Shown here piece by piece: positions 14,560 through 41,282 of a stretch of DNA of 64,000 nucleotides (position 1 is its first letter; each line of letters opens with the position of its first letter). Under the pieces are notes generated by a model that saw only the letters and a program-made list of their open reading frames with translations, did not search any database and was not told where the DNA came from. The translations under genes and the position numbers were made by a program. Source of the DNA: Ceratorhiza oryzae-sativae (taxonomy: Eukaryota > Basidiomycota > Agaricomycetes > Cantharellales > Ceratobasidiaceae); NCBI GenBank assembly GCA_030998015.1, contig JARWMV010000245.1:434001-498000 (forward strand), given 5' to 3'.

Positions 14560-16428
14560 ATGAACGCCGCATCGGCCGCACATCGATTCGACCCAGAAGA
14601 GCAGACCCATCCCGTCCAAGGCCCCCTCTCTCTCAGGGCACGAGAAAGATATCAACAAGCCGTCGACCGAGTCAACCAGCCCGACCAGTGTCCGACGAGA
14701 ACGTACCGAGTCGCTCCGGACTGTCGTCGACGAAAAGACAAAATACTCGGGTTCGGGTACGATTGAGGATCCCTATGTCGTTGACTGGGCACCTGAAGAT
14801 CCGCAAAACCCGTTCAACTGGTCGTCTTTTAAGCGATGGAGGATCACTGCGATCGTGAGTCACTTGTTTGTTTAATTTCGGCTCATTCATTGATTTGATT
14901 TTTATAGCTTGCAATCACCACCTTGTGTATTGCGTTTGCTTCGAGTTCTTACTCTGGAGGCATCCAGTACATGATGGCTGACTTGCACATGGGTCAATAT
15001 GTCGCCATTCTCGGCATTTCCCTCTATGTCGTTGGCTTTGGTCTTGGCCCACTCCTGTGGGGACCTCTGTCAGAGGTGAGCTCGCAGACATCCCGATAGA
15101 TTTGATTGCTAACTCGAGGTGTCTAGATGTACGGTCGACGATTGATCTTCTTGGTTTCCTTCCTGCCGTTTACGCTGTTCCACCTGGGTGGCGCTCTTGC
15201 GCACAACGTCGAGACCCTGCTTATCACTCGTTTCCTGGCGGGTGCGTTCGGCTCGTCACCACTGACCAACGCTGGAGGAACCATTGCCGACATGTTTACC
15301 GCACGCGAACGTGGTCTCGCTAGCGCGCTGTTTGCCATGGCACCTTTCGCTGGCCCTGTGCTCGGCCCCATCGTTGGAGGCTACGTTTCCGAATCTAGCG
15401 CCGGCTGGCGCTGGAATTTTTGGATCATGTTCATATTTTCGGCCGTCATGTTCGTCCTCAGCACGTTGTTTGTCCCCGAGACAGTGAGTCCAGGATTGGC
15501 AAACAGGTGGAATCTCATTAACAAATTTCGTAGTTTGCGCCAGTACTTCTTCGTCGTCGTGCCCGCGAGCTCCACGCTGAATCCGAAGGCAAGGTCCATT
15601 ACGTTAGCAAATACGAAAAGGGCAACAAGAAAGCCTTTGGCGAGATCATGAAAATCAACCTTAGCCGACCATTCATCTTGCTCTTTAAGGAGCCGATTGT
15701 CATGTTGCTATCCATCTACACTGCACTCGTCTACGGCACTCTGTACGGCCTCTTTGCTGCGTTCCCTGTCGTCTTCCAGCGAGGTCGTCACTTTACTCCT
15801 GGAGAAGGCGGCCTGGCTTTCCTGGGTGTTGGGCTGGGTATCATCATCGCGACTTGCCTCACTCCAGTGAACAACAAAATCTACGACCGTGCGATCGAAA
15901 AGGGTAATGGCATTGCTCCCCCAGAAGCCCGGTTGGTGATGGGCTGCGTGGGTGCTGTCCTGCTGCCGATCTCCATGACGTGGTTTGCCTGGACTACCTA
16001 CCCTCGATTCACTACATCGTTCCCATCATTGCAGGCGTTCCTTTCGGCGCTGGCATGTTGCTCGTGTTCACCTCGGTCATTTCCTACCTCATCGACTCCT
16101 ACACTCTCTACGCTGCCAGTGCCCTCGCTGCCAACGCCGTCCTGCGTTCGGTCATGGGCGCTGTCTTTCCGCTGTTCACGCCCAAGATGTATGCGTCTCT
16201 CGGAGACCAATGGGCGTGCATGGTGTTCGCGTTCCTAGCACTCGTTTGCACTCCGATGCCGTTCCTGTTTTACCGATACGGACCTGCTATCAGGGCCCGC
16301 TCAAAGTTCTCGGTCAGCCCTCCGACGTCGAGTGGAAATCCTGTTCCCGAGGTTGTCGAACGTGAATTGGAGAGGGAAGCCGAGGTCGAGGCTGAGAAGA
16401 GACACGTAGAGGCTCGCTCTGCTGCATA
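14560..16428 (+). CDS. DHA1-type MFS drug/polyamine transporter (frame disrupted)
   Basis: A 12-helix major facilitator of the fungal FLU1/TPO1 type, a proton antiporter exporting drugs or polyamines at the plasma membrane. The soluble N-terminus has DPYVVDWAPEDPQNPFNWS, the typical entry to helix 1. Motif A is GPLSEMYGRR, followed by RFLAGAFGSSPLTNAGG and AGPVLGPIVGGYVSE (motif C region). Exons: up to 14854, 14908-15075, 15127-15483, 15534-16428. Two frame problems exist. The N-terminal ATG (14560) is out of frame with the conserved part, and near 16,003 a CCC run breaks the frame where the right-arm copy has CCCC and stays open. The 3' part from 15,936 lies in the palindrome. Whether this copy works depends on whether the missing C is real. 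Confidence 0.8.
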
Positions 16429-17441
16429 AAATCGTTGGTCTGTACCCTAACGGACCGTGTGTCACGATTTGATGTTTTCGCACTTTCTCCTCTTTGGGCA
16501 TAACACAGTTTTGAGATTGTTCCACACGCATATATCTTATTTACCTCGCGCATGTTTATAGATTCCTTCTTCCGAGTAGATTTGTAGCCTTTTCCTTAAT
16601 GCGGTTGAATTTTGTACCCGAATTATCACGAGTCGAATGAAACGTTTTTACACATACAACCGGGAGCGAAAGGTAGCCAGGATTCGGCTAGATCGCGAAA
16701 GTCGAGCCGCGGCTTAAGTGAGATTTCAAGTTCGATGCCTCGACCCTGAAAGGCATTCTCACTCCTTCGAGTGTTCGGAGTGAAGCCGGAGCACTAGGAA
16801 ATGGCGTGCGCTGATGCTCAGCACTGTTCATACAGCCCAGGCATCTAGACAGATCAAGTATGCGACGAAGGAAAAAAGAAAGTGCTCACCTTGACACCAG
16901 AACCAGCGGCTGCCATCGGAATCGAACTTGCGACGTTCACAGTCAGAAAGTCAAGATGGCCTTGGGGACATAGGAATTACAATCCACTCATGGATGACGC
17001 TCCCTTCGGCACATGGAGCCCTTCTTAACCGTTAGGTAAATATATATACCGTCAACCTTTGCCAGAGCGGGACCATACCCACCACTCTCGTCGTGTGGAA
17101 TAAAACACGTATTTAACCCAGTGCACTTGGGCGTATGCAAATAATATCTCGGGTGATCATGTCCCTATGGAAGTTGAACATCAGGAGAGTGGCAGCGATA
17201 CCTTGCACAGTTGTAAACAGGGTCACTGGCCCACCCCTCTTGTTATGTTTACGCCGACGCCCCACAAACCATTCGCTGTAAGCCCATTTAATGTGGAAAC
17301 TTCACGCTCCGCTAAGACATAAGAATATCCCTGACCGTGCTTAGATTTTGCACAATCTTACCCTGATACTTAACGTGACTCTTCGGACAATAGACTGGGA
17401 CGGTGTGTGGCCGAAACAAGAAATTACATTGTGAATCGAAT
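16429..17441. other. Intergenic between convergent MFS and LEU1 (left arm)
   Basis: About 1 kb joining the 3' ends of MFS and LEU1. It contains 3' UTR sequence and one copy of the dispersed repeat (16,837-17,110). No protein-like frame. Mirrored in the right arm at about 33,821-34,831. Confidence 0.5.
16837..17110 (-). repeat. Dispersed SINE-like repeat, copy 1
   Basis: One of four copies in the window (others at 34,152-34,425, 41,283-41,533, 42,587-42,880). Oriented from the ACGTGTTTTATTCC end to the TAGATGCCTGG end, this copy lies on the minus strand. It contains a tRNA-like B-box (the AATTCGATTCCG region) and the constant block around CCCCAAGGCCAT. It is the palindrome partner of copy 2. 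Confidence 0.6.
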
Positions 17442-20191
17442 CTACCACTCCATCTTCTTGCCGCGAGTCCGCACCGCCGGCGCGTCCACTCGCCCACCGC
17501 CCTTGGCGTATCCGAACCCGTCCAGCCACGGCCACGTCTCCGACCGCCGCGTCTCGAACCCCTCGATCGCCGCCCCCTTTTGTAGTGTGATGCCGATGTC
17601 GTCCAGCCCGTTGAGCAGACAATGTCGCCGGAACGGTTCGACTGAATCCAAGTCAGCTATCCGTCTACGCTCGCTGATTCGCCTACTCACTCTCGAATGG
17701 AATAGGCGGCTGCCCGTTTGGTCGTCGCACCTCCAGCTTTTCCAAGTCCACCTCCAGCTCCAGTTCAGCCAGCGCGTCCTGGTACAGCAGCTCGCACGAC
17801 TCGGCCGGCAACACCACAGGCAGCAATCCGTTTTGCATCGAGTTGCCCTTGAAGATCTCTGCGAAGCTCGGTGCGATCACCGCCTGGATCCCAAAGTCTT
17901 TGCTGCACGCGTTCATCAGCCAACCCGGTCTGTTTCAGACTCGATCCACTCACAGACTCCACGGGGCATGCTCTCGGCTGCTCCCGCACCCAAAGTTCTC
18001 ACCGGTCACGACTAGGATCTTGGCCTTGTCCCACGGCGCCTTGTTCAGCACAAAGTCCGTCCTGTCGCCCGTCTTGGGGTCGACCCGGAGGGTGTGGAAC
18101 AGCGCGTTGCCCAGCCCGGTCCGCTTGAGGGTCTTCAAGAACTGTTTGGGGATGATCATGTCCGTGTCGACGTTGGCCATCGCCAGCGGGGCTGCGATTC
18201 CCTTGACCACCGTGAACTGGTTCACGGCCGCACCGGTCTTGGCCTCGGGATCTACGGCTGCGTCTTGAGCCCCGACCGGTGAGATGGGATTCGGCGGAGG
18301 CAGAACGTCGTCGGTCAGGTAGTCCATCGCGCTCGTCACCTTGAATGTCCCAGCGCCGGCGCCGGCCCCGACCCCGGCGGCGTCTCCCCCGCCCACGATC
18401 TTACGTACGTCCGTCAAACGGCCGGTTATCGCCGCTGCAGCCGCCATGGCCGGGCTGACTAGATGGGTCCGTCCGCCGGCGCCCTGGCGTCCCTCGAAGT
18501 TCCGGTTGCTGGTGCTCGCGCACCGTTCGCCGGGAGAGAGCTGGTCCGGGTTCATGCCTAAGCACATCGAACACCCGGCCTCGCGCCAGTCGAACCCGGC
18601 CCGGATGAACACCGCGTCCAGTCCCTCCGCTTCGGCCTGCTGCTTGACGAGCCCGGACCCGGGAACGATCATGGCGACGACGCCGTCGGCGACCTTGGCT
18701 CCCGGGCCGGCGGCGGCGACCACGGCTGCGGCGGCGCGCATATCCTCGATCCGTCCGTTGGTGCACGAACCAAGGAACACCTTGTCGACCTTGACGTCCT
18801 GCATGGGGGTGTTGGGCTCGAGACCCATGTAGGCGAGGGCGCGCTCCATGCCCTTGCGCTTGATGGGGTCGGCCTCGGCCGCTGGGTCGGGGACTCGGCC
18901 GGTGATGGGGACAACGTCTTGGGGCGAGGTTCCCCAGGTCACTGTCGGAACGATGTCTTCGGCGCGAATGGACACCTCGACGTCGAACTTGGCGCCGTCG
19001 TCGGTCTTGAGGGTCCTCCAGTACTTTTCGGCCCGATCCCATTCGGGGCCTTCTCTCGGCGCGAGCGGTCGGCCCTTGAGGTAGGCGAAGGTCACGTCGT
19101 CGGGGGCGATCATGCCAGCGCGGGCGCCGGCCTCGATGCTCATGTTGCAGACGCTCATGCGAGCCTCCATGCTGAAGCCCCTGAAGACGGACCCGGCGTA
19201 CTCGATGACGCAGCCGGTACCGCCGGCCGTACCGATGACGCCGATGATGTGCAGGATCACGTCTTTGGACGTGACGCCAGGGGGGAGAGTGCCCTCGACG
19301 GAGATGCGCATGTTTTTGGATTTCTTCTGCATGAGCGTTTGGGTCGCGAGGACGTGTTCGACTTCGGACGTGCCGATGCCGAACGCGATGGCGCCGAACG
19401 CGCCGTGGGCTGTTCAGAGGTTGTCAGACACAGAGATCGCGGCGAGTGGGGCGAGTGGGCGGCGGACGTACTGGATGTATGCGAGTCGCCGCAGACGATC
19501 GTCGTTCCGGGCAGCTATCGACGGTTCAAAGATATGAGTTTCAGTCGTCTGTATGAAAAGGATACTCACCGTAAATCCTTGTTCAGGCCCGATGATATGC
19601 ACGATCCCCTGCCTCCTGTCCTTCATCCCAAAGTACGTCAATCCAAATTCGCGCACATTCTCCTCCAGCGCCACGCATTGCGCACGCGAGTCTGGCTCGG
19701 CGATAAACTCTGAGACGGTCGTCATATTTTTTCGAGAGGTCGTTCTGCGGGTGCTGATTGAAGTGGCGGACGGCGGGATCGCGGGATATGGTGCTTACGG
19801 GACGTTGTGGTCGACCGTCGCAAGCGTACAGTCGGGGCGGCGAACCGGGCGGCCTGCATTTCGCCTAGGGTTAGGCCGTTAGTCGGTCTGGTATGTCTCG
19901 TGGTTGGACACGACGGAGACTCACAGGCCTTCGAACGCCTGAGGGCTCGTCACTTCGTGAACGAGATGCCTGTGCGCCACGCCATGTCAAACTGAATGCG
20001 CTGAAAGTCGTAGAACATATGCCTTACTTACCTGTCGATATATAGTAGTGTAACACCATCGTCCTGCGTGTGGCTGATCTCGCCCGTCAGACTCGTTCGT
20101 TCAGCCTCGGCAACCGACTGGAGACTCACACGACGTGGTCGTCCCAGATCTTGTCGTAGAGCGTCCGAGGGGGTGGAACGGCGGTCGGCAT
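17442..20191 (-). CDS. LEU1: 3-isopropylmalate dehydratase, intact left-arm copy
   Basis: Leu1 isomerises 2- to 3-isopropylmalate in leucine biosynthesis using a 4Fe-4S cluster, in the cytosol. Small 5' exons (start at 20,191, reading [12 protein letters not shown], then [21 protein letters not shown]) lead into a long exon from the MTTVSEF region. Cluster-binding sites are GSCTNGR and [12 protein letters not shown]. The swivel-domain motif is [15 protein letters not shown], and the C-terminal exons read [20 protein letters not shown] and [17 protein letters not shown]. Length is close to yeast Leu1 (779). The frame is open at [10 protein letters not shown], where the right-arm copy is broken (five C here against four). 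This is probably the functional copy. Transcribed away from the palindrome apex, convergent with the MFS gene. Confidence 0.95.
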
Positions 20192-20690
20192 AGTCACGTC
20201 GCGGGTGCGCTGCTTTTCAATCGACAGTCGCCGAGACTTTTTGGTAGGGTAAATGCTGGTGGTGGTGGTGTGGAGTCGGGATATTTATGCGAATGGCCGA
20301 GATCTAATTGGCCTCGGACTGTTCGAGACCCTTTCGGACTTGGTCGGCCGACGTCGTTCGGTCGTCGATCGTCGATGGTGATGTGCAGAACCGCTGGGAG
20401 CGGAGCTGAAACTGAGCTCGCCCGGAGACAGATCGGGCGAGGGTATATGCGCGTACAGTAGAAGCCGTCTGCCCGCAAACGTGGCGGCTTGGATTTTGTT
20501 TCCACCGCTTCATGAAAAGGGGTCGTCGTGATAAAGTAGACGACAAGCAAAGTCATCCAACGCCAGCCAGGGTGGGAATCAAGGGTTTTGTTGTGGCCGA
20601 TTTGGGGAGAAAAACACATGTAACTCCTGAACAGCATCAAATATAGACACATGGCACACAACATTTTGTAGATAATTTATAACAGAATTG
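20192..20690 (-). promoter_or_regulatory. LEU1 promoter region, left arm
   Basis: About 500 bp between the LEU1 start and the transposase relic. A TATA-like element (minus-strand ATAAATATCC) lies near 20,279-20,290, roughly 90 bp upstream of the ATG, beside a CACCACCACC run. Beyond about 20,600 the sequence becomes AT-rich and belongs to the mobile element. The same arrangement is mirrored in the right arm, so both LEU1 copies keep their promoter. Confidence 0.45.
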
Positions 20691-21299
20691 CATTACCATA
20701 CAATATTTGCTCTATCTAGCACATGCAGAGGTGAGTTTCCAAAATATGGCCTGAGGGGGGTGACAGCTGCTTGACAGCCAGCAGCAGGACCAACCAGCTG
20801 CAGGTACCCAGGGTCCTTAACTGGAATGAGGCATGCCTGGTGTGACTGGAGCAGCTCTACAGGGAAGGGAAGAGACATACTCAATACAAGTTGTCCAGAT
20901 CCTCCAATAACACATCTGGTATGATCCTGTGGCCATGGTATTTCTTGGCTGCCTGAGAGACTGTAACCATATGTGTGAACAAACTGCTGAGAGCAAGCAG
21001 CAAATCTTGAACACATTTAGATATGAATTAAGTAGAGTGTAATAATACATACCTTCAGATCAACTCCAAACTTACTGAATCCAGTGCCCTAAGCATATTT
21101 TGCCTGAGATCAGCCTCTGAGCTTGATGAGGGCAAGTCTTGATACACATGCTTTGCAGTGCCCCAGCACTGTTTGATTGGGTTGAGTTTGCAGTGATACT
21201 TTGGCAGGTACATAACCAAAAACCCTTCAGCTGCAGCTCACATCTGAAGGATTGACTTTTGCACAAGGACATCTGGTTGGTTCATCATGGTACAGCAAG
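20691..21299 (-). pseudogene. DDE transposase 3' fragment (left arm)
   Basis: Minus-strand frames give MYLPKYHCKLNPIKQCWGTA, which matches the LPxYHCELNPIExxWG motif of IS630/Tc1-like DDE endonucleases common in basidiomycete genomes, followed by an ALDSVSLELI helix. Further down, frames with a QAAKKYHGHR-like stretch match the C-terminal end of the same transposases. Only the last third is present and it is split by stops and a possible intron (near 21,010-21,055). The conserved Glu of PIE is Lys here. A dead remnant, lying directly against the LTR at 21,302. Confidence 0.6.
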
Positions 21300-21301
21300 T
21301 G

Positions 21302-21696
21302 TGTCACGAACTGACACACATACATCCACTCTACAATATTTTCTTGATTAACTACATTTTATGAGATCACCTTCAAAACATACTTGCCTTTTATGGTATA
21401 TCTGTGTCATGTGACTCAGGGAATGTTCCGGACTGGTAACCGAGATGTATTTCAACTCTGATGTGAAATTCCGCAGTTCCGCAGTCGCTTCTACTGCTTC
21501 TATCTCTTATCTGTCGTGACTCACTGTACAGACTTGTTTGTTATGATGTGGCTCATACTATGTATATAAACCAGGTCAAGTTCGCAGAGGACTCCTCAAG
21601 AACTTGACCTCTTGTCGAATACAAGTTCTTTTATTCTCTTACTATTTTCCTTGTCGCCTGACTTGTTGTCGTCGACATCAGGTCAAGTTCTTGACA
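21302..21696 (+). repeat. LTR of a Ty3-like retrotransposon (left arm)
   Basis: 395 bp beginning TGTCACGAACTGACAC and ending CTTGACA, so it has TG...CA ends, with a TATA box (TATATAAACC) near 21,561-21,570 at the expected promoter position. It is followed by retroelement ORFs on the same strand, so it is the 5' LTR. The matching 3' LTR is absent: the element is cut off at the palindrome apex. No clear tRNA primer site was recognised immediately downstream. Confidence 0.65.
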
Positions 21697-22000
21697 ATCG
21701 TAAGTCTCAGTGTCGTCTGGGATACGTTCTGGAACGCTGTTGGCGTCGTCTCGAGATAACTTCCCATTGCCTTCCCCAATCCTACTCCACCTATCCACAG
21801 CCATGAGATATCGTTGCCCTATATGCGCCTCTGTGAAACCTTGCATAGCCAGGTCCCTCACATGTTGTAACAAGCTTCAGTTCTCTAATCTCTTTTGTCA
21901 ACAAGAGGTGGGGTCGCTCATTGCCCTTAAGTAGCTGAGCAACAGAGGTCACCTTCCTATTCCAATAGACTCGGGAAAGGGTCTATTTTTCCTTTTTATC

Positions 22001-22754
22001 TTGCTCTTGCTCGAGTACGTCTCTAACGGAACGCACGGCCCTCAAGTGGCACAACCTTTTACAGAAGATCAGCACTGCCATCTGTGTGGGTGGTTCGGAC
22101 ACCTCTCGATCCACTGCTTCACCCTCAACTTGGTCGAAAGTATCCTTGAAGAAGCAGGGCACATCGATTTCAACCGAGTAGTAATTATCAAAGTCCGCCC
22201 CCAGAAAGTCGGATGTGCCCAACAAGCCTTCGTCACCAAGCCAGGTGCCCCTGAGTGCAAAATCTGCCGTTGGGCGAACGGAGCCACCTTCCCAGCGCGC
22301 TGTCCCTACTGTCCTAAGAAGGACAAATTCCTTTATTACTACACCATCCCCCGCAACCAGCTATAAGCTGGAGAACCTTGGCCAACAGCTTCTTTGTCAC
22401 CTGCTAAACACTATCGAAAACTTCCAAGACAGGTACCGTTACTACCAGAATAAGTACGAAGAAACCTGTGAAAGACTTCACAAAGCCAAGGCCCGTTGCG
22501 CATACTTAACCAAGCGTTTGCGCGAACACCAGGAGGACTACCTATCCCTCCTCCAAGACCATCTCAGACTAGAAGCAATAGTCCAAGAAACAACTGAACC
22601 CCACAAGTACGCCTTCCCTGTTTTCTCAACACCGTCAGACCTCCCTCACCCCACCTTTCTAAGTGGCACGGGCTCACCAATTCAGGAAGAAGCACCCCTT
22701 CCGGCAGCCCAAATCAATCCTTCCCAAGGAAGCACTCCTTCGGGACCCAATTAA
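22001..22754 (+). CDS. Retroelement leader ORF with zinc knuckle and coiled coil (left)
   Basis: An ORF between the LTR and gag. Its N-terminal part has a CCHC knuckle (CHLCGWFGHLSIHC, spacing C-x2-C-x4-H-x4-C) and a second Cys cluster (CKIC...CPYC). Its C-terminal part is a long charged coiled coil (NTIENFQDRYRYYQNKYEET onward). In this arm the two parts are in different frames because of one extra C near 22,350 (five C; the right arm has four and reads straight through YYYTIPATSYKL). Ends at 22,754, about 210 bp before gag. A further short frame with CPYCCQDTKSWDLDD lies at about 22,768-22,938. Function unknown; probably part of the element's capsid or leader region. Confidence 0.5.
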
Positions 22755-22965
22755 ACTAAAGAGGGTGGAGTGCCCATATTGTTGTCAGGATACCAAAAGC
22801 TGGGACTTGGACGATACTTGGTTGAGGTTTGTGGGAATCGGGAACTTTGAAATCTATAGACTTGTGAGGGGAACGGAAACCCTTTACTATCAAAACAACT
22901 CTCAATTCCCTGTACTTCCTTACCATCTTCGTCGCCTTTAAAAATCTACTCGAGTCCCTCCTGAA

Positions 22966-24085
22966 ATGGCATTGCCAACCCCTGCCCCTGCTTGGGCGAA
23001 TATGTCTGATGAAGATAAGGTCATCTATATGCTTCGATCAATGGACGAACTGCGAGAGCAAACCAATAATCTCCAAAATGATATTGGGGATGTCGAACAC
23101 AATAATAAAACCTACACAGATTCACTCAAGGCCAAACTTACCACGAATCAGACAAAAATAGATGCAGATGTGGCTGGACTAGCCACCAATGTCAACAACC
23201 TAGTGGGAATGTTAGCCATCCTCCAAACTACTATCACGCGCATTGAAGCGCAAATCAACACCTCCATGGGTGGCTCAGGCGCTGCTCCAGTACTAGCTCC
23301 CACTGGTACAGTCCAATCACAACCAACAGCACCTGCTCCCTCTGGAGGGTCGACCACAAAGGTTAAGATGGCCGCCCCTCAAAAATTTGATGGCACAAAG
23401 CGGGAAGACGCCATCTCATTCAGGATTGCATGTGCCCGATATGTCAATACAAACATGAGTGGGCACTCGGCTGACCAAGTGGTCGCCTTCATCACCTCTT
23501 ATCTTGAAGGGTCAGCAGCTGAATGGGTTAACTCATATGAAGAATTTGAAATTCTCAACCCTGGAACTGTGATCCCCTGGCTTCATGATGCCAATTTATT
23601 CTGGCAAGAGTTTACTACCCAATATGGGGATCTGAACTGCACTGAAAATAACCGCGACAAGTGGCGGAAGTTGAAACAATCCAAGACGGTTCAGGACTAC
23701 CTCACCCTATTCAACTTATATTCCACAGGCCTCAACTACAACGATGCCGCCATGCATGATCAATTCTATGATGGTCTGTCATCAGATGTAACAGATAGCA
23801 TGGTGGCCCAAAACTATGATCCCTGCACAAAGACATTTGCCCAGCTCACACAGCGGGCCCTAGAAATTGACTGCCACCTCATTTCCTTTGGTAGCAAGAG
23901 GACATCTCATGGGGGTAATAAGTCCAGCAGCAACAATGCTTCGACTAGCAGGCCCACAAGTAACCCCCAAAGCACTCCCCAAAAGGAGAAATTCAAGAAT
24001 GGGGAACGCATATACAAGATCAAAGATGGCAGGGCTGTAAAAGGTCAAATTGTAGCCATTGGGCCCAATGCAAAGGTAGAGGTGC
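22966..24085 (+). CDS. Ty3-like gag, N-terminal part (left arm, interrupted)
   Basis: Open for about 373 residues. A coiled coil near residues 20-100, a Pro/Gly/Thr linker, and then the retrotransposon gag domain: KFDGTKREDAISFRIACARY, AAEWVNSYEEF and FWQEFTTQYGD, ending in a Ser/Asn-rich region and NAKVEVL. After Leu the frame runs into the 1.42 kb transposon inserted at 24,086 and stops shortly afterwards. Excising the transposon and one GC duplicate joins VEVL to LYAKGFT in frame, the sequence now found in the palindrome spacer. The left arm is open where the right arm carries a 2-bp loss near 27,890. Confidence 0.75.
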
Positions 24086-25507: not shown

Positions 25508-25516
25508 GCTTCTCTA

Positions 25517-25773
25517 CTATATCCTCAACCACTGCCTCATATCCTGACATCTTGGCTGAGGGACATTTGGCAGCAATATGGCCCTGTCCTCCACAGTTAT
25601 AGCAGGTGTTTGTTCCCTTCCCCTTTCCTGCGCTATCCAGATCCATTGCGTCTGGATCCTTCGCCTTGGGGACCGCCGGTGGGTGATTGTCCTTCTTTAT
25701 GTCCTTGAAGGATTCTTGTATGTTGGCATTACTGCCATCGTAACAGACGGTTGGAACCGTGAAGCCCTTTGCA
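25517..25773 (-). other. Palindrome spacer: gag zinc-knuckle segment
   Basis: 257 bp of single-copy sequence between the arms. On the minus strand it encodes YAKGFTVPTVCYDG, a Lys/Asp-rich linker (DPDAMDLDSAGKG), the CCHC nucleocapsid knuckle CYNCGGQGHIAAKCPS, and GYEAVVEDIV. It continues the right-arm gag after removal of the inserted transposon. At its far end it abuts TAGAGA, the terminal six bases shared by both arms. Confidence 0.8.
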
Positions 25774-25782
25774 TAGAGAAGC

Positions 25783-27203
25783 TGTGCCAGAATTTTGCAG
25801 GACTCCGGCACCTGCAGCAGGACTCCTGCGCTTTTTGGCCATTCTGGCACTGGCACTGGCACTGGCTCGCCAGTTGCCGGAGTCCGTGCCAGAATTCTGG
25901 CAGGTGCAGGAGCATGCCAGAATCCCGGGACTCCTGCAACTGGCTATGGTCAGAACTCACCACATCAAGTTGTGTAATAGCTCATTAGATGCGCAGAAGA
26001 GAGAGCATTCCAATGATATAGAGCACGTTTCATACAAAATTCATTCTGGCAAATTTTACGCAGTTCTTTTGTTCAGGTCTTTGTGGCCAACATTTCCAGG
26101 GCCATAAACCTCACCACAATCTCTCGCAAAGTAGCTCATTAAATGCGCAAAAATCAGGAGATCACAGATATGTCATTTGCTCCGCGCAAAAAATTCGATA
26201 ACGCATAGTTCGCTCCAAATTGATGCTCAGGAAATATTCTGGGAAATGCGCACATGCTATTTCACCACAAAGAAAGCTGTTTGAAGCTTATCCGACCAGC
26301 TAGCCTTTCTCCTGAGCTTGAAAAACCCCTACTGACATTATATCTAGTAAATACATTGACTGGATAACTATGAACCGGGGTGTGTGCAGGCAACCTCACT
26401 GTCAACCCAGCAGAATCACTGCACATGGTCGGAAATTTATGTTATAAGCTTGTTCCAGATGTTTCAGGTACCTGAGATAGGGCAATAAGCATCCCTGAAT
26501 CTGTCTGTGATACTAAGAAAGCCAGAATAGCACTGTGTGGGTGTCCATGGCGCATTTCAGGGGGTTTTCAGCATCAGGGGCGCTGTTCCCCCAGTTTCAC
26601 CAGCTAAAACACCTTCAATCAGGCTGGTTTTTGGTATATAGAGTCCTTATGATAATGCGCATCGACTCCGCGCAAGGGAGCGAGGTTTGCACGGCTGGTT
26701 TCACTAGCGCTTGTGGCGCTGTTCAGGGGTTTCCCCCTTTATATCGCTGATAACTTTCGATAAAAGCGTTCGTTTATTATGAAAATATGTGCATTCGATT
26801 CCTCTCAGTGAGACGAGTCGATTGGTATGTATATCGCCCCAATTAGAGCTCAGGATAGCGAGCTTGAACATCTGCGCATCCCCCTGAATATTTTTCTTAG
26901 ACGATTCTGCGCCGATACTGCTCATTTCTTAACCGTTTGTAATCAAGTAAAGTACAATTTGATCCGCTGAATTTTGCGCATTTTATGAGTGCTTAATATA
27001 TGCAATCCGTGGTGGTCGTACAGGTGACAATGTGCCAGTATTCAGGTATGCAGGTATGCAGGTATGCCAGTACTGCAGGACTCCGCCTAGGACTCTGGCA
27101 CCCTTGAGGCTATTCTGGCACCTGCACTGGCAACTGGCACGCCGGAATTCGCTGGAATTTTAGCCAGAATTCTGGCAAGTTCTGGCTGCAGGAGCCTGGC
27201 ACA
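25783..27203 (-). mobile_element. 1.42 kb non-autonomous DNA transposon (right arm)
   Basis: Inverted counterpart of 24,086-25,507, with the same TGTGCCAG/CTGGCACA ends and flanking GC. It sits between the right-arm gag (ending at about 27,204) and the spacer gag segment, so here both halves of the interrupted gag flank it on the minus strand. Confidence 0.65.
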
Positions 27204-28315
27204 GCACCTCTACCTTTGCATTGGGCCCAATGGCTACAATTTGACCTTTTACAGCCCTGCCATCTTTGATCTTGTATATGCGTTCCCCATTCTTGAATTT
27301 CTCCTTTTGGGGAGTGCTTTGGGGGTTACTTGTGGGCCTGCTAGTCGAAGCATTGTTGCTGCTGGACTTATTACCCCCATGAGATGTCCTCTTGCTACCA
27401 AAGGAAATGAGGTGGCAGTCAATTTCTAGGGCCCGCTGTGTGAGCTGGGCAAATGTCTTTGTGCAGGGATCATAGTTTTGGGCCACCATGCTATCTGTTA
27501 CATCTGATGACAGACCATCATAGAATTGATCATGCATGGCGGCATCGTTGTAGTTGAGGCCTGTGGAATATAAGTTGAATAGGGTGAGGTAGTCCTGAAC
27601 CGTCTTGGATTGTTTCAACTTCCGCCACTTGTCGCGGTTATTTTCAGTGCAGTTCAGATCCCCATATTGGGTAGTAAACTCTTGCCAGAATAAATTGGCA
27701 TCATGAAGCCAGGGGATCACAGTTCCAGGGTTGAGAATTTCAAATTCTTCATATGAGTTAACCCATTCAGCTGCTGACCCTTCAAGATAAGAGGTGATGA
27801 AGGCGACCACTTGGTCAGCCGAGTGCCCACTCATGTTTGTATTGACATATCGGGCACATGCAATTCTGAATGAGATGGCGTCTTCCCTTTGTGCCATCAA
27901 ATTTTTGAGGGGCGGCCATCTTAACCTTTGTGGTCGACCCTCCAGAGGGAGCAGGTGCTGTTGGTTGTGGTTGGACTGTACCAGTGGGAGCTAGTACTTG
28001 AGCAGCGCCTGAGCCGCCCATGTTGATCTGCGCTTCAATGCGCGTGATAGTAGTTTGGAGAATGGCTAACATTCCCACTAGGTTATTGACATTGGTGGCT
28101 AGTCCAGCCACATCCGCATCTATTTTTGTCTGATTCGTGGTAAGTTTGGCCTCGAGTGAATCTGTGTAGGTTTTATTATTGTGTTCGACGTCCCCAATAT
28201 CATTTTGGAGATTATTGGTTTGCTCTCGCAGTTCGTCCATTGATCGAAGCATATAGATGACCTTATCTTCATCAGACATATTCGCCCAAGCAGGGGCAGG
28301 GGTTGGCAATGCCAT
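27204..28315 (-). pseudogene. Ty3-like gag, N-terminal part (right arm, frameshifted)
   Basis: Same gag as in the left arm, starting at 28,315. Compared with the left arm it lacks two bases in the AAAG(CG)GGAAG stretch near 27,890, which ends the first frame after FDGTKG. It also lacks six bases at QIN(TS)MGG, an in-frame loss. Downstream of the shift the frame continues openly to KVEVLC, then enters the inserted transposon. Confidence 0.7.
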
Positions 28316-28520
28316 TTCAGAAGGGACTTGAGTGGATTTGTTTAAAGGCGACGAAGTCGGTAAGGAAGTACAGGGAATTGAGAGTTGTTTTGATAATACA
28401 GGATTTCCGTTCCCCTTACAAGTCTATAGATTTCAAAGTTCCCGATTCCCAAACCTCAACCAAGTATCGTCCAAGTCCCAGCTTTTGGTGTCCTGGCAAC
28501 ATATGGGCACTCCACCTTCT

Positions 28521-29240
28521 TTAGTTTAATTTGGTCCCGACGGAGTGCTTCCTTGGGAAGGATTGATTTGGGCTGCTGGAAGGGGTGCTTCTTCCTGAAT
28601 TGGCAAGCCCGTGCCACTTAGAAAGGTGGGGTGAGGAAGGTCTGACGGTGTTGAGAAACGGGAAGGCGTACTTGTGGGGTTCAATTGTTTCTTGGACTAT
28701 TGCTTCTAGTCTGAGATGGTCTTGGAGGAGGGATAGGTAGTCCTCCTGGTGTTCGCGCAAACGCTTGGTTAAGTATGCGCAACGGGCCTTGGCTTCGTGA
28801 AGTTTTTCACAGGTTTCTTCGTACTTATTCTGGTAGTAACGGTACCTGTCTTGGAAGTTTTCGATAGTGTTTAGCAGGTGACGAAGAAGCTGTTGGCCAA
28901 GGTTCTCCAGCTTATAGCTGGTTGCGGGGATGGTGTAGTAATAAAGGAATTTGTCCTTCTTAGGACAATAGGGCAGCGCGCTGGGAAGGTGGCTCCGTTC
29001 CCCAGGCAGATTTTGCACTCAGGGGCACCTGGCTTGGTGACGAAGGCTTGTTGGGCACGTCCGACTTCTGGGGGCGGACTTTGATAATTACTACTCGGTT
29101 GAAATCGATGTGCCCTGCTTCTTCAAGGATACTTTCGACCAGTTGAGGGTGAAGCAGTGGATCGAAGGTGTCCGAACCACCCACACAGATGGCAGCGCTG
29201 ATCTTCTGTAAAAGGTTGTGCCACTTGAGGGCCGTGCGTT
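28521..29240 (-). CDS. Retroelement leader ORF (right arm)
   Basis: Counterpart of 22,001-22,754. Here the knuckle-side and coiled-coil parts are joined in one frame at YYYTIPATSYKLENLG, showing what the undamaged ORF looks like. Upstream, an extra disruption between the LVESILEEAGHIDFN segment and the Cys cluster is visible near 29,000, so this copy is not fully open either. It ends with PLPTGSTPSG-like Pro/Ser residues at 28,521. Confidence 0.45.
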
Positions 29241-29569
29241 CCGTCAGAGACGTACTCGAGCAAGAGCAAGATAAAAAGGAAAAATAGACCCTTTCCCGAG
29301 TCTATTGGAATAGGAAGGTGACCTCCGTTGCTCAGCTACTTAAGGGCAATGAGCGACCCCACCTCTTGTTGACAAAGAGATTAGAGAACCGAAGCTTGTT
29401 ACACGTGTGAGGGACCTGGCTATGCAAGGTTTCACAGAGGCGCGTATAGGGCAACGATATCTCATGGCTGTGGATAGGTGGAGTGGGATTGGGGAAGGCA
29501 ACGGGAGTTATCTCGAGACGACGCCAACAGCGTTCCAAACGTATCCCAGACGACACTGAGACTTACGAT

Positions 29570-29962
29570 TGTCAAGAACTTGACCTGATGTCGACGACAA
29601 CAAGTCAGGCGACAAGGAAAATAGTAAGAGAATAAAAGAACTTGTATTCGACAAGGTCAAGTTCTTGAGGAGTCCTCTGCGAACTTGACCTGGTTTATAT
29701 ACATAGTATGAGCCACATCATAACAAACAAGTCTGTACAGTGAGTCACGACAGATAAGAGATAGAAGCAGTAGAAGCGACTGCGGAACTGCGGAATTTCA
29801 CATCAGAGTTGAAATACATCTCGGTTACCAGTCCGGAACATTCCCTGAGTCACATGACACAGATATACCATAAAAGGCAAGTATGTTTTGAAGATGATCT
29901 CATAAAATGTAGTTAATCAAGAAAATATTGTAGAGTGGATGTATGTGTGTCAGTTCGTGACA
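29570..29962 (-). repeat. LTR of the Ty3-like element (right arm)
   Basis: 393 bp, inverted counterpart of 21,302-21,696, with the same TG...CA ends and TATATAAACC box. It faces the opposite direction, so the two LTRs diverge in outward position but both transcribe toward the apex. Confidence 0.65.
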
Positions 29963-29964
29963 CA

Positions 29965-30600
29965 CTTGCTGTACCATGATGAACCAACCAGATGTCCTTG
30001 TGCAAAAGTCAATCCTTCAGATGTGAGCTGCAGCTGAAGGGTTTTTGGTTATGTACCTGCCAAAGTATCACTGCAAACTCAACCCAATCAAACAGTGCTG
30101 GGGCACTGCAAAGCATGTGTATCAAGACTTGCCCTCATCAAGCTCAGAGGCTGATCTCAGGCAAAATATGCTTAGGGCACTGGATTCAGTAAGTTTGGAG
30201 TTGATCTGAAGGTATGTATTATTACACTCTACTTAATTCATATCTAAATGTGTTCAAGATTTGCTGCTTGCTCTCAGCAGTTTGTTCACACATATGGTTA
30301 CAGTCTCTCAGGCAGCAAAGAAATACTGTGGCCACAGGATCATACCAGATGTGTTATTGGAGGATCTGGACAACTTGTACTGAGTATGTCTCTTCCCTTC
30401 CCTGTAGAGCTGCTCCAGTCACACCAGGCATGCCTCATTCCAGTTAAGGACCCTGGGTACCTGCAGCTGGTTGGTCCTGCTGCTGGCTGTCAAGCAGCTG
30501 TCACCCCCCTTGGCTGTATTTTGGAAACTCACCTCTGCATGTGCTAGATAGAGCAAATATTGTATAGTAATGCAATTCTGTTATAAATTATCTACAAAAT
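29965..30600 (+). pseudogene. DDE transposase 3' fragment (right arm)
   Basis: Counterpart of 20,691-21,299 on the plus strand, with the same MYLPKYHCKLNP motif (about 30,050-30,090) and the same truncated extent. Small differences from the left copy are scattered through it. No intact transposase in the window. Confidence 0.6.
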
Positions 30601-31071
30601 GTTGTGCACCATGTGTGTATATTCAATGCTGTTCGGGAGTTACATGTGTTTTTCTCCCCAAATCGGCCACAACAAAACCCTTGATTCCCACCCTGGCTGG
30701 CGTTGGATGACTTTGCTTGTTGTCTACTTTATCACGACGACCCCTTTTCATGAAGCGGCGGAAACAAAATCCAAGCCGCCACGTTTGCGGGCAGACGGCT
30801 TCTACTGTACGCGCATATACCCTCGCCCGATCTGTCTCCGGGCGAGCTCAGTTTCAGCTCCGCTCCCAGCGGTTCTGCACATCACCATCGACGATCGACG
30901 ACCGAACGACGTCGGCCGACCAAGTCCGAAAGGGTCTCGAACAGTCCGAGGCCAATTAGATCTCGGCCATTCGCATAAATATCCCGACTCCACACCACCA
31001 CCACCAGCATTTACCCTACCAAAAAGTCTCGGCGACTGTCGATTGAAAAGTAGCGCACCCGCGACGTGACT

Positions 31072-33820
31072 ATGCCGACCGCCGTTCCACCCCCTCGGAC
31101 GCTCTACGACAAGATCTGGGACGACCACGTCGTGTGAGTCTCCAGTCGGTTGCCGAGGCTGAACGAACGAGTCTGACGGGCGAGATCAGCCACACGCAGG
31201 ACGATGGTGTTACGCTACTATATATCGACAGGTAAGTAAGGCATATGTTCTACGACTTTCAGCGCATTCAGTTTGACATGGCGTGGCGCACAGGCATCTC
31301 GTTCACGAAGTGACGAGCCCTCAGGCGTTCGAAGGCCTGTGAGTCTCCGTCGTGTCCAACCACGAGACATACCAGACCGACTAACGGCCTAACCCTAGGC
31401 GAAATGCAGGCCGCCCGGTTCGCCGCCCCGACTGTACGCTTGCGACGGTCGACCACAACGTCCCGTAAGCACCATATCCCGCGATCCCGCCGTCCGCCAC
31501 TTCAATCAGCACCCGCAGAACGACCTCTCGAAAAAATATGACGACCGTCTCAGAGTTTATCGCCGAGCCAGACTCGCGTGCGCAATGCGTGGCGCTGGAG
31601 GAGAATGTGCGCGAATTTGGATTGACGTACTTTGGGATGAAGGACAGGAGGCAGGGGATCGTGCATATCATCGGGCCTGAACAAGGATTTACGGTGAGTA
31701 TCCTTTTCATACAGACGACTGAAACTCATATCTTTGAACTGTCGATAGCTGCCCGGAACGACGATCGTCTGCGGCGACTCGCATACATCCAGTACGTCCG
31801 CCACCCACTCGCCCCACTCGCCGCGATCTCTGTGTCTGACAACCTCTGAACAGCCCACGGCGCGTTCGGCGCCATCGCGTTCGGCATCGGCACGTCCGAA
31901 GTCGAACACGTCCTCGCGACCCAAACGCTCATGCAGAAGAAATCCAAAAACATGCGCATCTCCGTCGAGGGCACTCTCCCCCCTGGCGTCACGTCCAAAG
32001 ACGTGATCCTGCACATCATCGGCGTCATCGGTACGGCCGGCGGTACCGGCTGCGTCATCGAGTACGCCGGGTCCGTCTTCAGGGGCTTCAGCATGGAGGC
32101 TCGCATGAGCGTCTGCAACATGAGCATCGAGGCCGGCGCCCGCGCTGGCATGATCGCCCCGACGACGTGACCTTCGCCTACCTCAAGGGCCGACCGCTCG
32201 CGCCGAGAGAAGGCCCCGAATGGGATCGGGCCGAAAAGTACTGGAGGACCCTCAAGACCGACGACGGCGCCAAGTTCGACGTCGAGGTGTCCATTCGCGC
32301 CGAAGACATCGTTCCGACAGTGACCTGGGGAACCTCGCCCCAAGACGTTGTCCCCATCACCGGCCGAGTCCCCGACCCAGCGGCCGAGGCCGACCCCATC
32401 AAGCGCAAGGGCATGGAGCGCGCCCTCGCCTACATGGGTCTCGAGCCCAACACCCCCATGCAGGACGTCAAGGTCGACAAGGTGTTCCTTGGTTCGTGCA
32501 CCAACGGACGGATCGAGGATATGCGCGCCGCCGCAGCCGTGGTCGCCGCCGCCGGCCTGGGAGCCAAGGTCGCCGACGGCGTCGTCGCCATGATCGTTCC
32601 CGGGTCCGGGCTCGTCAAGCAACAGGCCGAAGCGGAGGGACTGGACGCAGTGTTCATCCGGGCCGGGTTCGACTGGCGCGAGGCCGGGTGTTCGATGTGC
32701 TTAGGCATGAACCCGGACCAGCTCTCTCCCGGCGAACGGTGCGCGAGCACCAGCAACCGGAACTTCGAGGGACGCCAGGGCGCCGGCGGACGGACCCATC
32801 TAGTCAGCCCGGCCATGGCGGCTGCAGCGGCGATAACCGGCCGTTTGACGGACGTACGTAAGATCGTGGGCGGGGGAGACGCCGCCGGGGTCGGGGCCGG
32901 GGCCGGTGCTGGGACATTCAAGGTGACGAGCGCGATGGACTACCTGACCGACGACGTTCTGCCTCCGCCGAATCCCATCTCACCGGTCGGGGCTCAAGAC
33001 GCAGCCGTAGATCCCGAGGCCAAGACCGGTGCGGCCGTGAACCAGTTCACGGTGGTCAAGGGAATCGCAGCCCCGCTGGCGATGGCCAACGTCGACACGG
33101 ACATGATCATCCCCAAACAGTTCTTGAAGACCCTCAAGCGGACCGGGCTGGGCAACGCGCTGTTCCACACCCTCCGGGTCGACCCCAAGACGGGCGACAG
33201 GACGGACTTTGTGCTGAACAAGGCGCCGTGGGACAAGGCCAAGATCCTAGTCGTGACCGGTGAGAACTTTGGGTGCGGGAGCAGCCGAGAGCATGCCCCG
33301 TGGAGTCTGTGAGTGGATCGAGTCTGAAACAGACCGGGTTGGCTGATGAACGCGTGCAGCAAAGACTTTGGGATCCAGGCGGTGATCGCACCGAGCTTCG
33401 CAGAGATCTTCAAGGGCAACTCGATGCAAAACGGATTGCTGCCTGTGGTGTTGCCGGCCGAGTCGTGCGAGCTGCTGTACCAGGACGCGCTGGCTGAACT
33501 GGAGCTGGAGGTGGACTTGGAAAAGCTGGAGGTGCGACGACCAAACGGGCAGCCGCCTATTCCATTCGAGAGTGAGTAGGCGAATCAGCGAGCGTAGACG
33601 GATAGCTGACTTGGATTCAGTCGAACCGTTCCGGCGACACTGTCTGCTCAACGGGCTGGACGACATCGGGATCACACTACAAAAGGGGGCGGCGATCGAG
33701 GGGTTCGAGACGCGGCGGTCGGAGACGTGGCCGTGGCTGGACGGGTTCGGATACGCCAAGGGCGGTGGGCGAGTGGACGCGCCGGCGGTGCGGACTCGCG
33801 GCAAGAAGATGGAGTGGTAG
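31072..33820 (+). pseudogene. LEU1: 3-isopropylmalate dehydratase, right-arm copy with frameshift
   Basis: Second LEU1 copy with the same exon pattern as the left arm, including promoter, start (31,072) and stop (33,820). Near 32,155-32,160 the GCCCC run is one C shorter than the left copy (GCCCCC), so GMIAPDDV becomes GMIAPTT and stops at 32,170. From 32,167 the original frame reopens to the end, with [15 protein letters not shown] and [15 protein letters not shown] all present. At least one substitution changes a residue (AAGPGAK to AAGLGAK, and FEPSIAA to FELSIAA in flanking intronic frame). If the missing C is a sequencing error this is a second active gene; if real, it is a fresh pseudogene. 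Confidence 0.85.
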
Positions 33821-34831
33821 ATTCGATTCACAATGTAATTTCTTGTTTCGGCTACACACCGTCCCAGTCTATTGTCCGGAGAGTGACGTTAAGTATCAGG
33901 GTAAGATTGTGCAAAATCTAAGCACCGTCAGGGATATTCTTATTTCTTAGCGGAGCGTGAAGTTTCCACATTAAATGGGCTTACAGCGAGTGGTTTGTGG
34001 GGCGTCGGCGTAAACATAACAAGAGGGGTGGGCCAGTGACTCTGTTTACAACTGTGCAAGGTATCGCTGCCACTCTCCTGATGTTCAACTTCCATAGGGA
34101 CATGATCACCCGAGATATTATTTGCATACGCCCAAGTGCACTGGGTTAAATACGTGTTTTATTCCACACGACGAGAGTGGTGGGTATGGTCCCGCTCTGG
34201 CAAAGGTTGACGGTATATATATTTACCTAACGGTTAAGAAGGGCTCCATGTGCCGAAGGGAGCGTCATCCATGAGTGGATTGTAATTCCTATGTCCCCAA
34301 GGCCATGTTGACTTTCTGACTGTGAACGTCGCAAATTCGATTCCGATGGCAGCCGCTGGTTCTGGTGTCAAGGTGAGCACTTTCTTTTTTGCGTCGTCGC
34401 ATACTTGATTTGTCTAGATGCCTGGGCTGTATGAACAGTGCTAAGCATCAGCGCACGCCATTTCCTAGAGCTCTGGCTTCACTCCGAACACTCGAAGGAG
34501 TGAGAATGCCTTTCAGGGTCGAGGCATCGAACTTGAAATCTCACTTAAGCCGCGGCTCGACTTTCGCGATCTAGCTGAATCCTGGCTACCTTTCGCTCCC
34601 GGTTGTATGTGTAAAACGTTTCATTCGACTCGTGATAATTCGGGTACAAAATTCAACCGCATTAAGGAAAAGGCTACAAATCTACTCGGAAGAAGGAATC
34701 TATAAACATGCGCAAGGTAAATAAGATATATGCGTGTGGAACAATCTCAAAACTGTGTTATGCCCAAAGAGGAGAAAGTGCGAAAACATCAAATCGTGAC
34801 ACACGGTCCGTTAGGGTACAGACCAACGATT
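33821..34831. other. Intergenic between LEU1 and MFS fragment (right arm)
   Basis: Mirror of 16,429-17,441. It contains copy 2 of the dispersed repeat (34,152-34,425) and 3' UTR sequence; no gene seen. Confidence 0.5.
34152..34425 (+). repeat. Dispersed SINE-like repeat, copy 2
   Basis: Runs from ACGTGTTTTATTCC to TAGATGCCTGG. Internal B-box-like AATTCGATTCCG, then a T-rich stretch (CTTTCTTTTTTG) near the 3' end. Palindrome partner of copy 1. Confidence 0.6.
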
Positions 34832-35371
34832 TTATGCAGCAGAGCGAGCCTCTACGTGCCTCTTCTCAGCCTCGACCTCGGCTTCCCTCTCCAATTCACG
34901 TTCGACAACCTCGGGAACAGGATTTCCACTCGACGTCGGAGGGCTGACCGAGAACTTTGAGCGGGCCCTGATAGCAGGTCCGTATCGGTAAAACAGGAAC
35001 GGCATCGGAGTGCAAACGAGTGCTAGGAACGCGAACACCATGCACGCCCATTGGTCTCCGAGAGACGCATACATCTTGGGCGTGAACAGCGGAAAGACAG
35101 CCCCCATGACCGAACGCAGGACGGCGTTGGCAGCGAGGGCACTGGCAGCGTAGAGAGTGTAGGAGTCGATGAGGTAGGAAATGACCGAGGTGAACACGAG
35201 CAACATGCCAGCGCCGAAAGGAACGCCTGCAATGATGGGAACGATGTAGTGAATCGAGGGGTAGGTAGTCCAGGCAAACCACGTCATGGAGATCGGCAGC
35301 AGGACAGCACCCACGCAGCCCATCACGAACCAGGGGCAGGTGTATGCGCCGGCAGTACAAACCCGCGGCAA
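34832..35371 (-). pseudogene. MFS transporter C-terminal fragment (right arm)
   Basis: The last 165 or so residues of the MFS transporter, starting inside a helix (VMGCVGAVLLPISMTWFAW) and ending with the acidic tail EREAEVEAEKRHVEARSAA. Here the TACCCCTCG run has four C, so WTTYPSIHYIVPIIAG reads through openly, unlike the left-arm gene. It lacks everything upstream of 35,326: no promoter, no first seven or so helices. The ORF runs on to an ATG at 35,371 through unrelated border sequence. Confidence 0.85.
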
Positions 35372-35395
35372 GAAGAGGTTAATCCAATTTCCAAT
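35332..35395 (+). pseudogene. Diverged third scrap of the LEU1 3' end
   Basis: Just outside the palindrome, the plus strand reads GQVYAPAVQTRGKKRLIQ, matching the LEU1 C-terminus [18 protein letters not shown], with GCGCCGGC and CGCGGCAAGAAGA identical at the DNA level and a similar A/T-rich tail (ATTTCCAATGT against ATTCACAATGT). It is clearly more diverged than the two arm copies are from each other. Short, so chance cannot be fully excluded. Confidence 0.5.
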
Positions 35396-35441
35396 GTGGT
35401 TACATCACCCCAAAGGGTCTTGTTCTTGTCTTTGACGACGC

Positions 35442-38867: not shown

Positions 38868-39145
38868 CCGGGATGATTGGACAATTTGGATGAACAAAGC
38901 CTTGTACTATATGTGTGTTCTGTTCTTGTGTGTGTTCTTTCGTTCTGTTTCACCTTTGGTCTATCACTCGTTGAAGTGGTCTTTCTTTCAGGACAAATAT
39001 CATAATACACTCCTAGTTCTGGTTCTACTCTTCCTATGCATTGAATCCCGCACCTGCAGGTCTGAAAACCTGTCCGGCTTGGCGTGGTTTGTGAGGGGTG
39101 TGCTATGACTGGATGTATGCGCATTAGTGAGACTAGGTGCTCGCG

Positions 39146-41209: not shown

Positions 41210-41282
41210 TCAAACGTGGGCCTCAAACTCCCTTGAGCCAGATTAATTTTGATACATTGTTTTATTTAACGCTTACTACTAG

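What the first reader, a model, noticed from the sequence alone, without database searches (positions are those of the whole stretch)
15936..35326. 19.4 kb imperfect palindrome carrying a duplicated LEU1 locus
Two arms of about 9.55 kb are inverted copies separated by 257 bp. Each has a full LEU1 gene with promoter, the 3' end of an MFS gene, and the same nested set of mobile elements. Palindromes this long are rare in nuclear genomes: they are unstable and known chiefly from sex chromosomes, amplified DNA and mating-type regions. Visible divergence between arms argues against one molecule simply being read twice. It could be a true fold-back duplication, or two haplotypes of a dikaryon joined at a repeat during assembly.
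Basis: seen in the sequence. Interest (0 to 1): 0.88.

Follow-up and report, generated by a model that had tools for sequence, protein, structure and literature searches.

The report
Transposon-made mirror duplication of LEU1
In this fungal genome assembly the leucine-synthesis gene LEU1 sits in two mirror-image copies, and the footprints of a jumping gene at the mirror's centre suggest that one misfired jump likely made the duplication, although an assembly mix-up of two nuclei is not excluded.

Summary
Confirmed: two 9.6-kb inverted arms (15928-25516, 25774-35334; 98.6%) around 257 bp. No third LEU1 was found, the flank stretches tested are single copy, and RPB2-type domains look haploid. 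A Rhizoctonia solani gene model fuses LEU1's end to the right-flank gene, so that linkage is conserved. New is the centre. The spacer belongs to an LTR retrotransposon present in both arms, and each arm ends at the exact terminus of a 1,440-bp hAT-like transposon, E (8-bp target duplications, TAGAG ends). Right-arm E has TGCAAAGG on both sides; left-arm E has TGCAAAGG on one side, CTATATCC on the other; the two Es agree at 22 of 24 comparable variable sites. A maize paper describes this one-sided pattern in direct duplications made by alternative hAT transposition. Best reading (0.48): aberrant sister-chromatid-type transposition of E. Rivals: haplotype chimera in the assembly (0.30), two E insertions plus fold-back (0.16). 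Against: allele-like divergence (1.05%), a mixed-read consensus in part of the right arm, and 6 of 18 other E copies without target duplications. Long reads would decide.

The parts
15928..25516 (+). left arm of the palindrome
   Evidence: inverted match 98.6% to 25774-35334
25774..35334 (-). right arm of the palindrome
25517..25773. spacer Y: 257 bp of the LTR retrotransposon (CCHC knuckle reading, by eye in the ORF), continuous with the right-arm retrotransposon and inverted relative to the left
   Evidence: 39 further places listed, 91-98% identical, 40 of 391 candidates scored; orientation from uninterrupted copies
24077..25516 (+). left-arm copy of transposon E; flanks TGCAAAGG (outer) and CTATATCC (inner): no matching target duplication
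25774..27212 (-). right-arm copy of transposon E; TGCAAAGG on both sides (intact 8-bp target duplication)
21302..24076 (+). left-arm LTR retrotransposon, 5' LTR (about 21302-21677, inferred from the 376-bp repeats) through gag, interrupted by E
   Evidence: 32 further near-full matches, 91-95%, 33 of 980 candidates scored; Retrotrans_gag PF03732
27213..29963 (-). right-arm copy of the same retrotransposon insertion; the part equivalent to 21609-23424 has a mixed-read consensus
   Evidence: end coordinates by arithmetic
20532..21288 (+). left end of a DNA transposon of about 3.3 kb with about 286-bp terminal inverted repeats (inferred from paired matches), truncated by the retrotransposon; right copy about 29977-30732
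17445..20191 (-). LEU1 (3-isopropylmalate dehydratase), left copy; exons that could be matched are open
31072..33817 (+). LEU1, right copy; 1-bp shorter G run in an exon near 32161 and a P-to-L change
15127..16429 (+). MFS transporter, left copy (exons seen; start not determined); frame crosses the arm edge at 15928, frame shift at 16000 (CCC against CCCC)
34832..35334 (-). MFS 3' end, right copy, cut at the arm edge
35335..38867 (+). right flank with gene X (a CUE-domain name is attached to one distant relative, P0125); linked to LEU1 in an R. solani gene model
12600..15927 (+). left flank with MFS 5' part; one place in the genome

Best explanation
The palindrome is an inverted duplication of the LEU1 locus, likely made when one copy of a hAT-like DNA transposon (E) transposed aberrantly, so that an E end on one sister chromatid was joined to a site 257 bp away on the other. 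Shown: LTR retrotransposon DNA beside LEU1 holds E with an 8-bp target duplication (TGCAAAGG) in the right arm; in the left arm nearly the same E variant has TGCAAAGG on its outer side but abuts, at its exact terminus, the far end of a 257-bp piece of that retrotransposon. Inferred: transposase acting across sister chromatids inserted the E end at CTATATCC, fusing the two sisters head to head as X-E-Y'-E'-X'. Inferred: the unstable product was stabilised by breakage beyond MFS on the left copy and joining to the present left flank. Inferred: the right arm is the original, because its LEU1-gene X order matches R. solani and the spacer reads on from its retrotransposon. The MFS gene of the right arm would have lost its 5' part in a later deletion. 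Both LEU1 copies then diverged mostly at synonymous sites.
For: Both inner edges are exact E termini; in 7 of 7 uninterrupted retrotransposon copies viewed the bases before the spacer's far end are GGTTGTTT, which match the E end (CTTCTCTA) at 2 of 8 places and differ at the joint itself. Right-arm E has TGCAAAGG/TGCAAAGG, left-arm E TGCAAAGG/CTATATCC; 12 of the 18 other copies examined (the best-scoring; 65 further exact left ends exist) have exact 8-bp duplications. Left and right E agree at 22 of 24 comparable variable sites (a 25th is deleted in the right E), including two uncommon states on the spacer side (25215, 25254); 3 of 153 pairs among the 18 others are as close. Among 67 exact left ends the pair is the only one closer than 15 kb; two insertions 257 bp apart are expected 0.02 times if insertion is random. 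PMC3744419 (section 10 read) describes the same one-sided pattern in two of three maize hAT-associated direct duplications; its introduction (passage) says sister chromatid transposition can give inverted duplications. R. solani P0122: residues 1-112 match LEU1 P0005 645-758 at 90%, residues 199-660 match gene X at 42-62%. LEU1, the two flank stretches and RPB2-type domains showed no second haplotype contig.
Against: Arm divergence (1.05%; LEU1 coding 6 synonymous to 1 replacement in three exon stretches) is as expected for alleles; R. cerealis has 1.31% heterozygosity. Part of the right-arm retrotransposon has 26 private gap columns against 0-1 in 12 other copies, 11 of 27 gap columns falling where the left arm has a non-majority base (3.7% of columns): reads were mixed there. 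6 of 18 other E copies also lack target duplications, one pair being reciprocal swaps, so E ends are places of exchange or of misjoining in general. The two Es share no state that is absent or nearly absent (0-1 of 18) elsewhere. No reciprocal product with CTATATCC on the E left side was found. No second E needed for classical sister chromatid transposition is present here. The whole MFS on the left and the cut MFS on the right need a further event. The R. solani linkage rests on one gene model. hAT membership of E rests on ends and target duplication only.
Confidence: 0.48

Rival explanations
1. Assembly chimera of two nuclei: the strain is dikaryotic, the haplotypes differ in structure at this locus, and the assembler switched haplotypes inside E, joining one LEU1 allele head to head with the other. 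The arms are then alleles, not paralogues.
For: Allele-like divergence and mostly synonymous LEU1 differences; a dikaryotic relative with 1.31% heterozygosity and 31 inversions between haplotypes; mixed-read consensus in the right arm; E is young with 67 exact left ends, and 6 of 18 examined copies have mismatched flanks, two of them reciprocal.
Against: The LEU1 3' side leads to the whole MFS and the left flank on one side and to an MFS remnant and gene X on the other, so collinear haplotypes cannot give this contig without a further rearrangement. The joint of E with the spacer's far end must exist in some molecule. No haplotig of LEU1 or of the flank stretches tested, and RPB2-type domains at three loci only.
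Confidence: 0.3
2. Two E copies inserted in inverted orientation 257 bp apart; a break beside them let the inverted pair anneal, and fold-back synthesis or template switching copied the arm, as in yeast inverted duplications or ODIRA.
For: An inverted E pair with a short spacer is the classic substrate; PMC10622511 (abstract and section 11 read) reports inverted duplications at inverted repeats followed by repeat-mediated secondary joins. It predicts the same flanks of the two Es.
Against: The two Es carry nearly the same variant states, also on the spacer side, where an independent insertion should differ; two random insertions 257 bp apart are expected 0.02 times. Gene conversion between the Es, or local hopping of E, could weaken both points.
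Confidence: 0.16
3. Artificial palindrome from a chimeric or twice-read molecule (missed adapter, amplification chimera).
For: Known artefact of long reads after amplification (PMC6218980, start of abstract in a search listing).
Against: 79 of 100 differences are transitions, LEU1 coding differences are mostly synonymous, and the two outer flanks differ from each other and are found once.
Confidence: 0.04

Closest known systems
Maize Ac/Ds alternative transposition (reversed-ends and sister chromatid transposition; PMC3744419 section 10 and passages, PMC8225341 passages)
   Same: 8-bp target duplications; original element with both duplications, second copy with one; rearrangement edge at an exact transposon end; inverted duplications reported for the sister chromatid form
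   Different: The one-sided pattern read there is in direct duplications; here a fungal element without a found transposase, no second element seen, a 257-bp spacer and genes in the arms; no transposition was observed
Yeast fold-back inverted duplications (PMC10622511, abstract and section 11 read)
   Same: Inverted duplication round a short spacer with an inverted repeat at the centre and a secondary join at the outer edge
   Different: The centre here is an exact transposon terminus carried by two copies of nearly one element variant
ODIRA palindromes (PMC10766186, abstract and outline seen)
   Same: Palindromic junction at interrupted inverted repeats
   Different: ODIRA starts as an inverted triplication; here two copies only
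Sex-chromosome palindromes with arm-to-arm gene conversion (recalled)
   Same: Long inverted arms, patchy divergence
   Different: Here 98.6% identity, one housekeeping gene, and no shown gene conversion; part of the patchiness is a consensus artefact

Membership tests
hAT DNA transposons (element E) | 8-bp target site duplication | tested here: met
   12 of 18 examined copies and right-arm E exact; 6 of 18 and left-arm E not
hAT DNA transposons (element E) | short terminal inverted repeats beginning YARNG (rule recalled) | tested here: met
   TAGAG..GCTGTGCCAG at both ends, 15 of 17 bases alike; other superfamilies with 8-bp duplications not excluded
hAT DNA transposons (element E) | mobilised by a hAT transposase | tested here: inconclusive
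   no long ORF of E was identified as a transposase; the hAT dimerisation domain has 26 matches elsewhere; E-like ends not found in the 3 of 26 loci looked at
Duplication by alternative transposition | one element with two-sided, the other with one-sided target duplication | tested here: met
Duplication by alternative transposition | both elements copies of one insertion | tested here: met
   22 of 24 comparable variable sites shared, a 25th deleted in the right E; 3 of 153 other pairs as close; no state private to the two
Duplication by alternative transposition | matching target duplication at the reciprocal product | tested here: inconclusive
   none found with up to 2 mismatches apart from an unrelated copy on C8; the product may be lost
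Duplication by alternative transposition | partner E end in suitable orientation at the time of the event | not testable with these tools
   no ancestral allele available
Fold-back inverted duplication | two independent inverted repeats beside the break | tested here: inconclusive
   the two Es look like one variant, but conversion could mimic this
Haplotype chimera in assembly | arms at half depth, phased by nucleus | not testable with these tools
   no reads available

The most novel reading that the evidence does not exclude
A single hAT-like transposon in a basidiomycete made a 19-kb gene-bearing palindrome in one aberrant transposition: a natural fungal case of the sister-chromatid transposition known from maize, leaving both LEU1 copies in use long enough to diverge mostly at synonymous sites. 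The 65 further E copies, a third of the 18 examined with mismatched flanks, would be agents of rearrangement across the genome.
Probability: 0.38. Interest if true: 0.68.

Novelty: new variant of a known kind. Interest (0 to 1): 0.52.

Why it matters
Long gene-bearing palindromes in nuclear genomes are usually credited to fold-back or breakage and fusion (recalled). A centre that carries its own transposition signature would let the cause be read from sequence alone, and it gives a simple rule (exact element end, two-sided plus one-sided target duplication) by which other inverted duplications can be screened. It also warns that young, near-identical DNA transposons in this fungus mark places where either chromosomes or assemblies exchange partners.

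Tried and rejected
Read-twice or amplification artefact: disfavoured by transitions, synonymous pattern and unlike flanks. Spacer as an independent element: rejected, it is the continuation of the arm retrotransposon. Left arm as the original, with one spacer flip: held at first, dropped after the R. solani fusion, though the whole MFS on the left still speaks for it. Right-arm divergence in the retrotransposon as conversion from one donor: not supported, no donor stands out among the 12 copies compared, and gaps sit at mixed sites. C8 E copy with flank ATATATCC as the reciprocal product: rejected, it has its own target duplication and other surroundings. Inverted duplications round other E copies: compared 1.5-kb flanks in 18 loci (one flank shorter); L044 and L051 have 216- and 403-bp inverted matches, both with intact target duplications. 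This test is weak: it also missed the LEU1 palindrome itself (L037, L038), whose arms start beyond the flank held. Left-flank synteny by a LEU1 search admitting longer candidates: no fusion noticed in the 120 listed of 8,000 scored. Assembly named by contig count: no paper found.
Full report
Observation. The window is bases 434001-498000 of contig C245 of a 48.8-Mb, 253-contig genome. The self-comparison shows one long inverted repeat, 15928-25516 against 35334-25774, 98.6% over 9,593 columns. The spacer is 257 bp. A second alignment counts 100 substitutions and 36 gap columns in 9,557 aligned pairs. LEU1 protein hits are best to Ceratobasidium sp. AG-Ba (90%), with Rhizoctonia solani next among named hits (85-86%), so the organism is probably one of the Ceratobasidiaceae; the species is not known.

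Copy number. LEU1 is found only in the two arms. The left flank with the MFS 5' part (12600-15927) has one place in the genome. The right flank 35320-41000 has one full match; other matches are a dispersed repeat at its far end and one weak partial match. One search, on a longer left-flank stretch, was not scored. The RNA polymerase beta-subunit domain PF04563 falls in three loci (four matches), as in one haploid set with Pol I, II and III (the expectation is recalled). The assembly thus shows one haplotype where tested, except perhaps here.

Anatomy of an arm, from outside in: MFS 3' end; LEU1, convergent to it; 757 bp of a DNA transposon of about 3.3 kb with inverted ends of about 286 bp (inferred from paired matches); an LTR retrotransposon cut off in gag; and element E. 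The spacer is the next 257 bp of the same retrotransposon, listed at 39 further places at 91-98% (40 of 391 candidates scored). In uninterrupted copies the spacer follows the arm sequence directly; in the window it stands in that relation to the right arm and is inverted against the left.

Element E. E is 1,440 bp and ends in TAGAG..GCTGTGCCAG (15 of 17 bases alike). The genome has 67 exact left ends, two of them here; 36 other full-length and one nearly full copy among the 40 candidates scored are 97-99% identical. Of the 18 other copies examined, the best-scoring ones, 12 have an exact 8-bp target duplication and 6 do not; two of the six, on C29 and C99, carry each other's flanks. Right-arm E has TGCAAAGG on both sides. 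Left-arm E has TGCAAAGG outside and CTATATCC, the far end of the spacer, inside. In 7 of 7 uninterrupted retrotransposon copies viewed, the bases before the spacer's far end are GGTTGTTT, against CTTCTCTA at the E end (2 of 8 alike, the last base different), so the joint is an exact E terminus and not a microhomology join. Of 25 sites that vary among the 18 copies (minor state in at least two), left and right E agree at 22, differ at 2 and one is deleted in the right E; shared states include the uncommon ones at 25215 and 25254 near the spacer. Of 153 pairs among the others 3 are as close; all-site differences are 6 against a mean of 10.6. No state is shared by the two and absent or single elsewhere. 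The two Es are most simply one insertion, duplicated. Two random insertions within 257 bp are expected 0.02 times, and no other two of the 67 left ends lie within 15 kb of each other.

Mechanism. PMC3744419 (section 10 read) describes this pair of footprints in two of three maize hAT-associated direct duplications: the first element with two-sided duplications, the second with the same duplication on one side only, because its other end took part in the later transposition. Its introduction (passage) and PMC8225341 (passages) state that the sister chromatid form can yield inverted duplications, and the latter names impala in Fusarium as a case of non-standard transposition. I infer the same for E: an E end on one chromatid joined at CTATATCC on its sister, 257 bp from its own position, gives X-E-Y'-E'-X' with the observed flanks and spacer direction. 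The chromatid-level steps, the partner E end, and the later break and join to the left flank are inferred. Two E insertions followed by fold-back would leave the same flanks; the shared E variants and the rarity of close pairs speak against it.

Which arm is original. R. solani protein P0122 (660 aa, contig of 318 kb) is a fused gene model: residues 1-112 match LEU1 P0005 645-758 at 90%, residues 199-335 and 338-660 match gene X of the right flank at 42% and 62%. Gene X thus lies just downstream of LEU1 on the same strand in that R. solani record, the order seen on the right. It is one gene model among 41 listed gene X relatives; the rest were not tested for fusion, apart from three (P0121, P0123, P0124) that match gene X only. 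The spacer direction agrees. Against this, the left MFS has its 5' part while the right one is cut, so a deletion on the right, or another event, is needed. The right outer joint has 6 of 8 matching bases beyond unbroken identity, a weak sign of microhomology.

Divergence. LEU1 differs at 10 of 2,746 bases (0.36%), E 0.42%, the MFS end 0.71%, the LEU1 upstream stretch 0.59%; the retrotransposon 1.67%, the DNA transposon 1.95%, the MITE 2.5%, and also one stretch not known to be repeated, 17101-17444, 2.0%. In three LEU1 exon stretches there are 6 synonymous and 1 replacement difference; one more in exon 2 (20049) is synonymous by my own reading. One copy being dead since birth is disfavoured (p about 0.02 under an assumed replacement fraction of 0.60), so the right-arm frameshift is recent or a consensus error. 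In the retrotransposon 31 substitutions look derived on the left and 16 on the right, in E 5 of 6 are left-arm minority states; this may mean that the right arm's repeats were drawn towards the family average. The right-arm retrotransposon is suspect as sequence: 26 private gap columns against 0-1 in 12 other copies, and 11 of 27 gap columns fall where the left arm has a non-majority base, against 3.7% of columns. Reads of different copies were mixed there.

The strongest rival. The arms differ about as much as haplotypes of a related dikaryon (1.31% k-mer heterozygosity, 31 inversions; PMC12144256, passages), and mixed consensus and mismatched E flanks show that E and the retrotransposon are hard places for the assembler or for the chromosomes. 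Simple collinear haplotypes cannot give LEU1 two different 3' surroundings, and some molecule must hold the joint of E with CTATATCC, so the chimera needs a structural difference plus a switch inside 1.4 kb. I give it 0.30.

Print. Searches (top rows of the listings only; 21, 193, 21, 170 and 36 papers held the terms) showed no report of this palindrome or of a transposition-made palindrome in Ceratobasidiaceae; most subscription journals are not held.

Noticed in passing
G000:C29:12324-13763 (L045) and G000:C99:19837-21275 (L048): Two E copies carry each other's 8-bp flanks (TCACTCAC/GTTCTGTA and GTTCTGTA/TCACTCAC): a reciprocal exchange inside E, in the chromosomes or in the assembly.
   Followed up: partly
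window 41278-41544 and 42619-42885: Inverted pair of a MITE-like repeat of about 260 bp (89%) that also occurs in both arms at 16837-17091 and 34171-34425.
   Followed up: no
window 27890-29660: Right-arm retrotransposon stretch with many 1-2 base gaps at sites where copies differ, as in a consensus built from mixed reads.
   Followed up: yes
G000:C37:227, C79:1101, C238:1780: E left ends lie within 2 kb of the start of their contigs, as if assembly stopped at E.
   Followed up: no
P0122 (R. solani): Gene model that fuses the end of LEU1 with the next gene; useful as a synteny marker, doubtful as a protein.
   Followed up: yes
window 4693-5427 and 46098-46679: UAA-family transporter and a TLC-domain gene in the flanks.
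   Followed up: no
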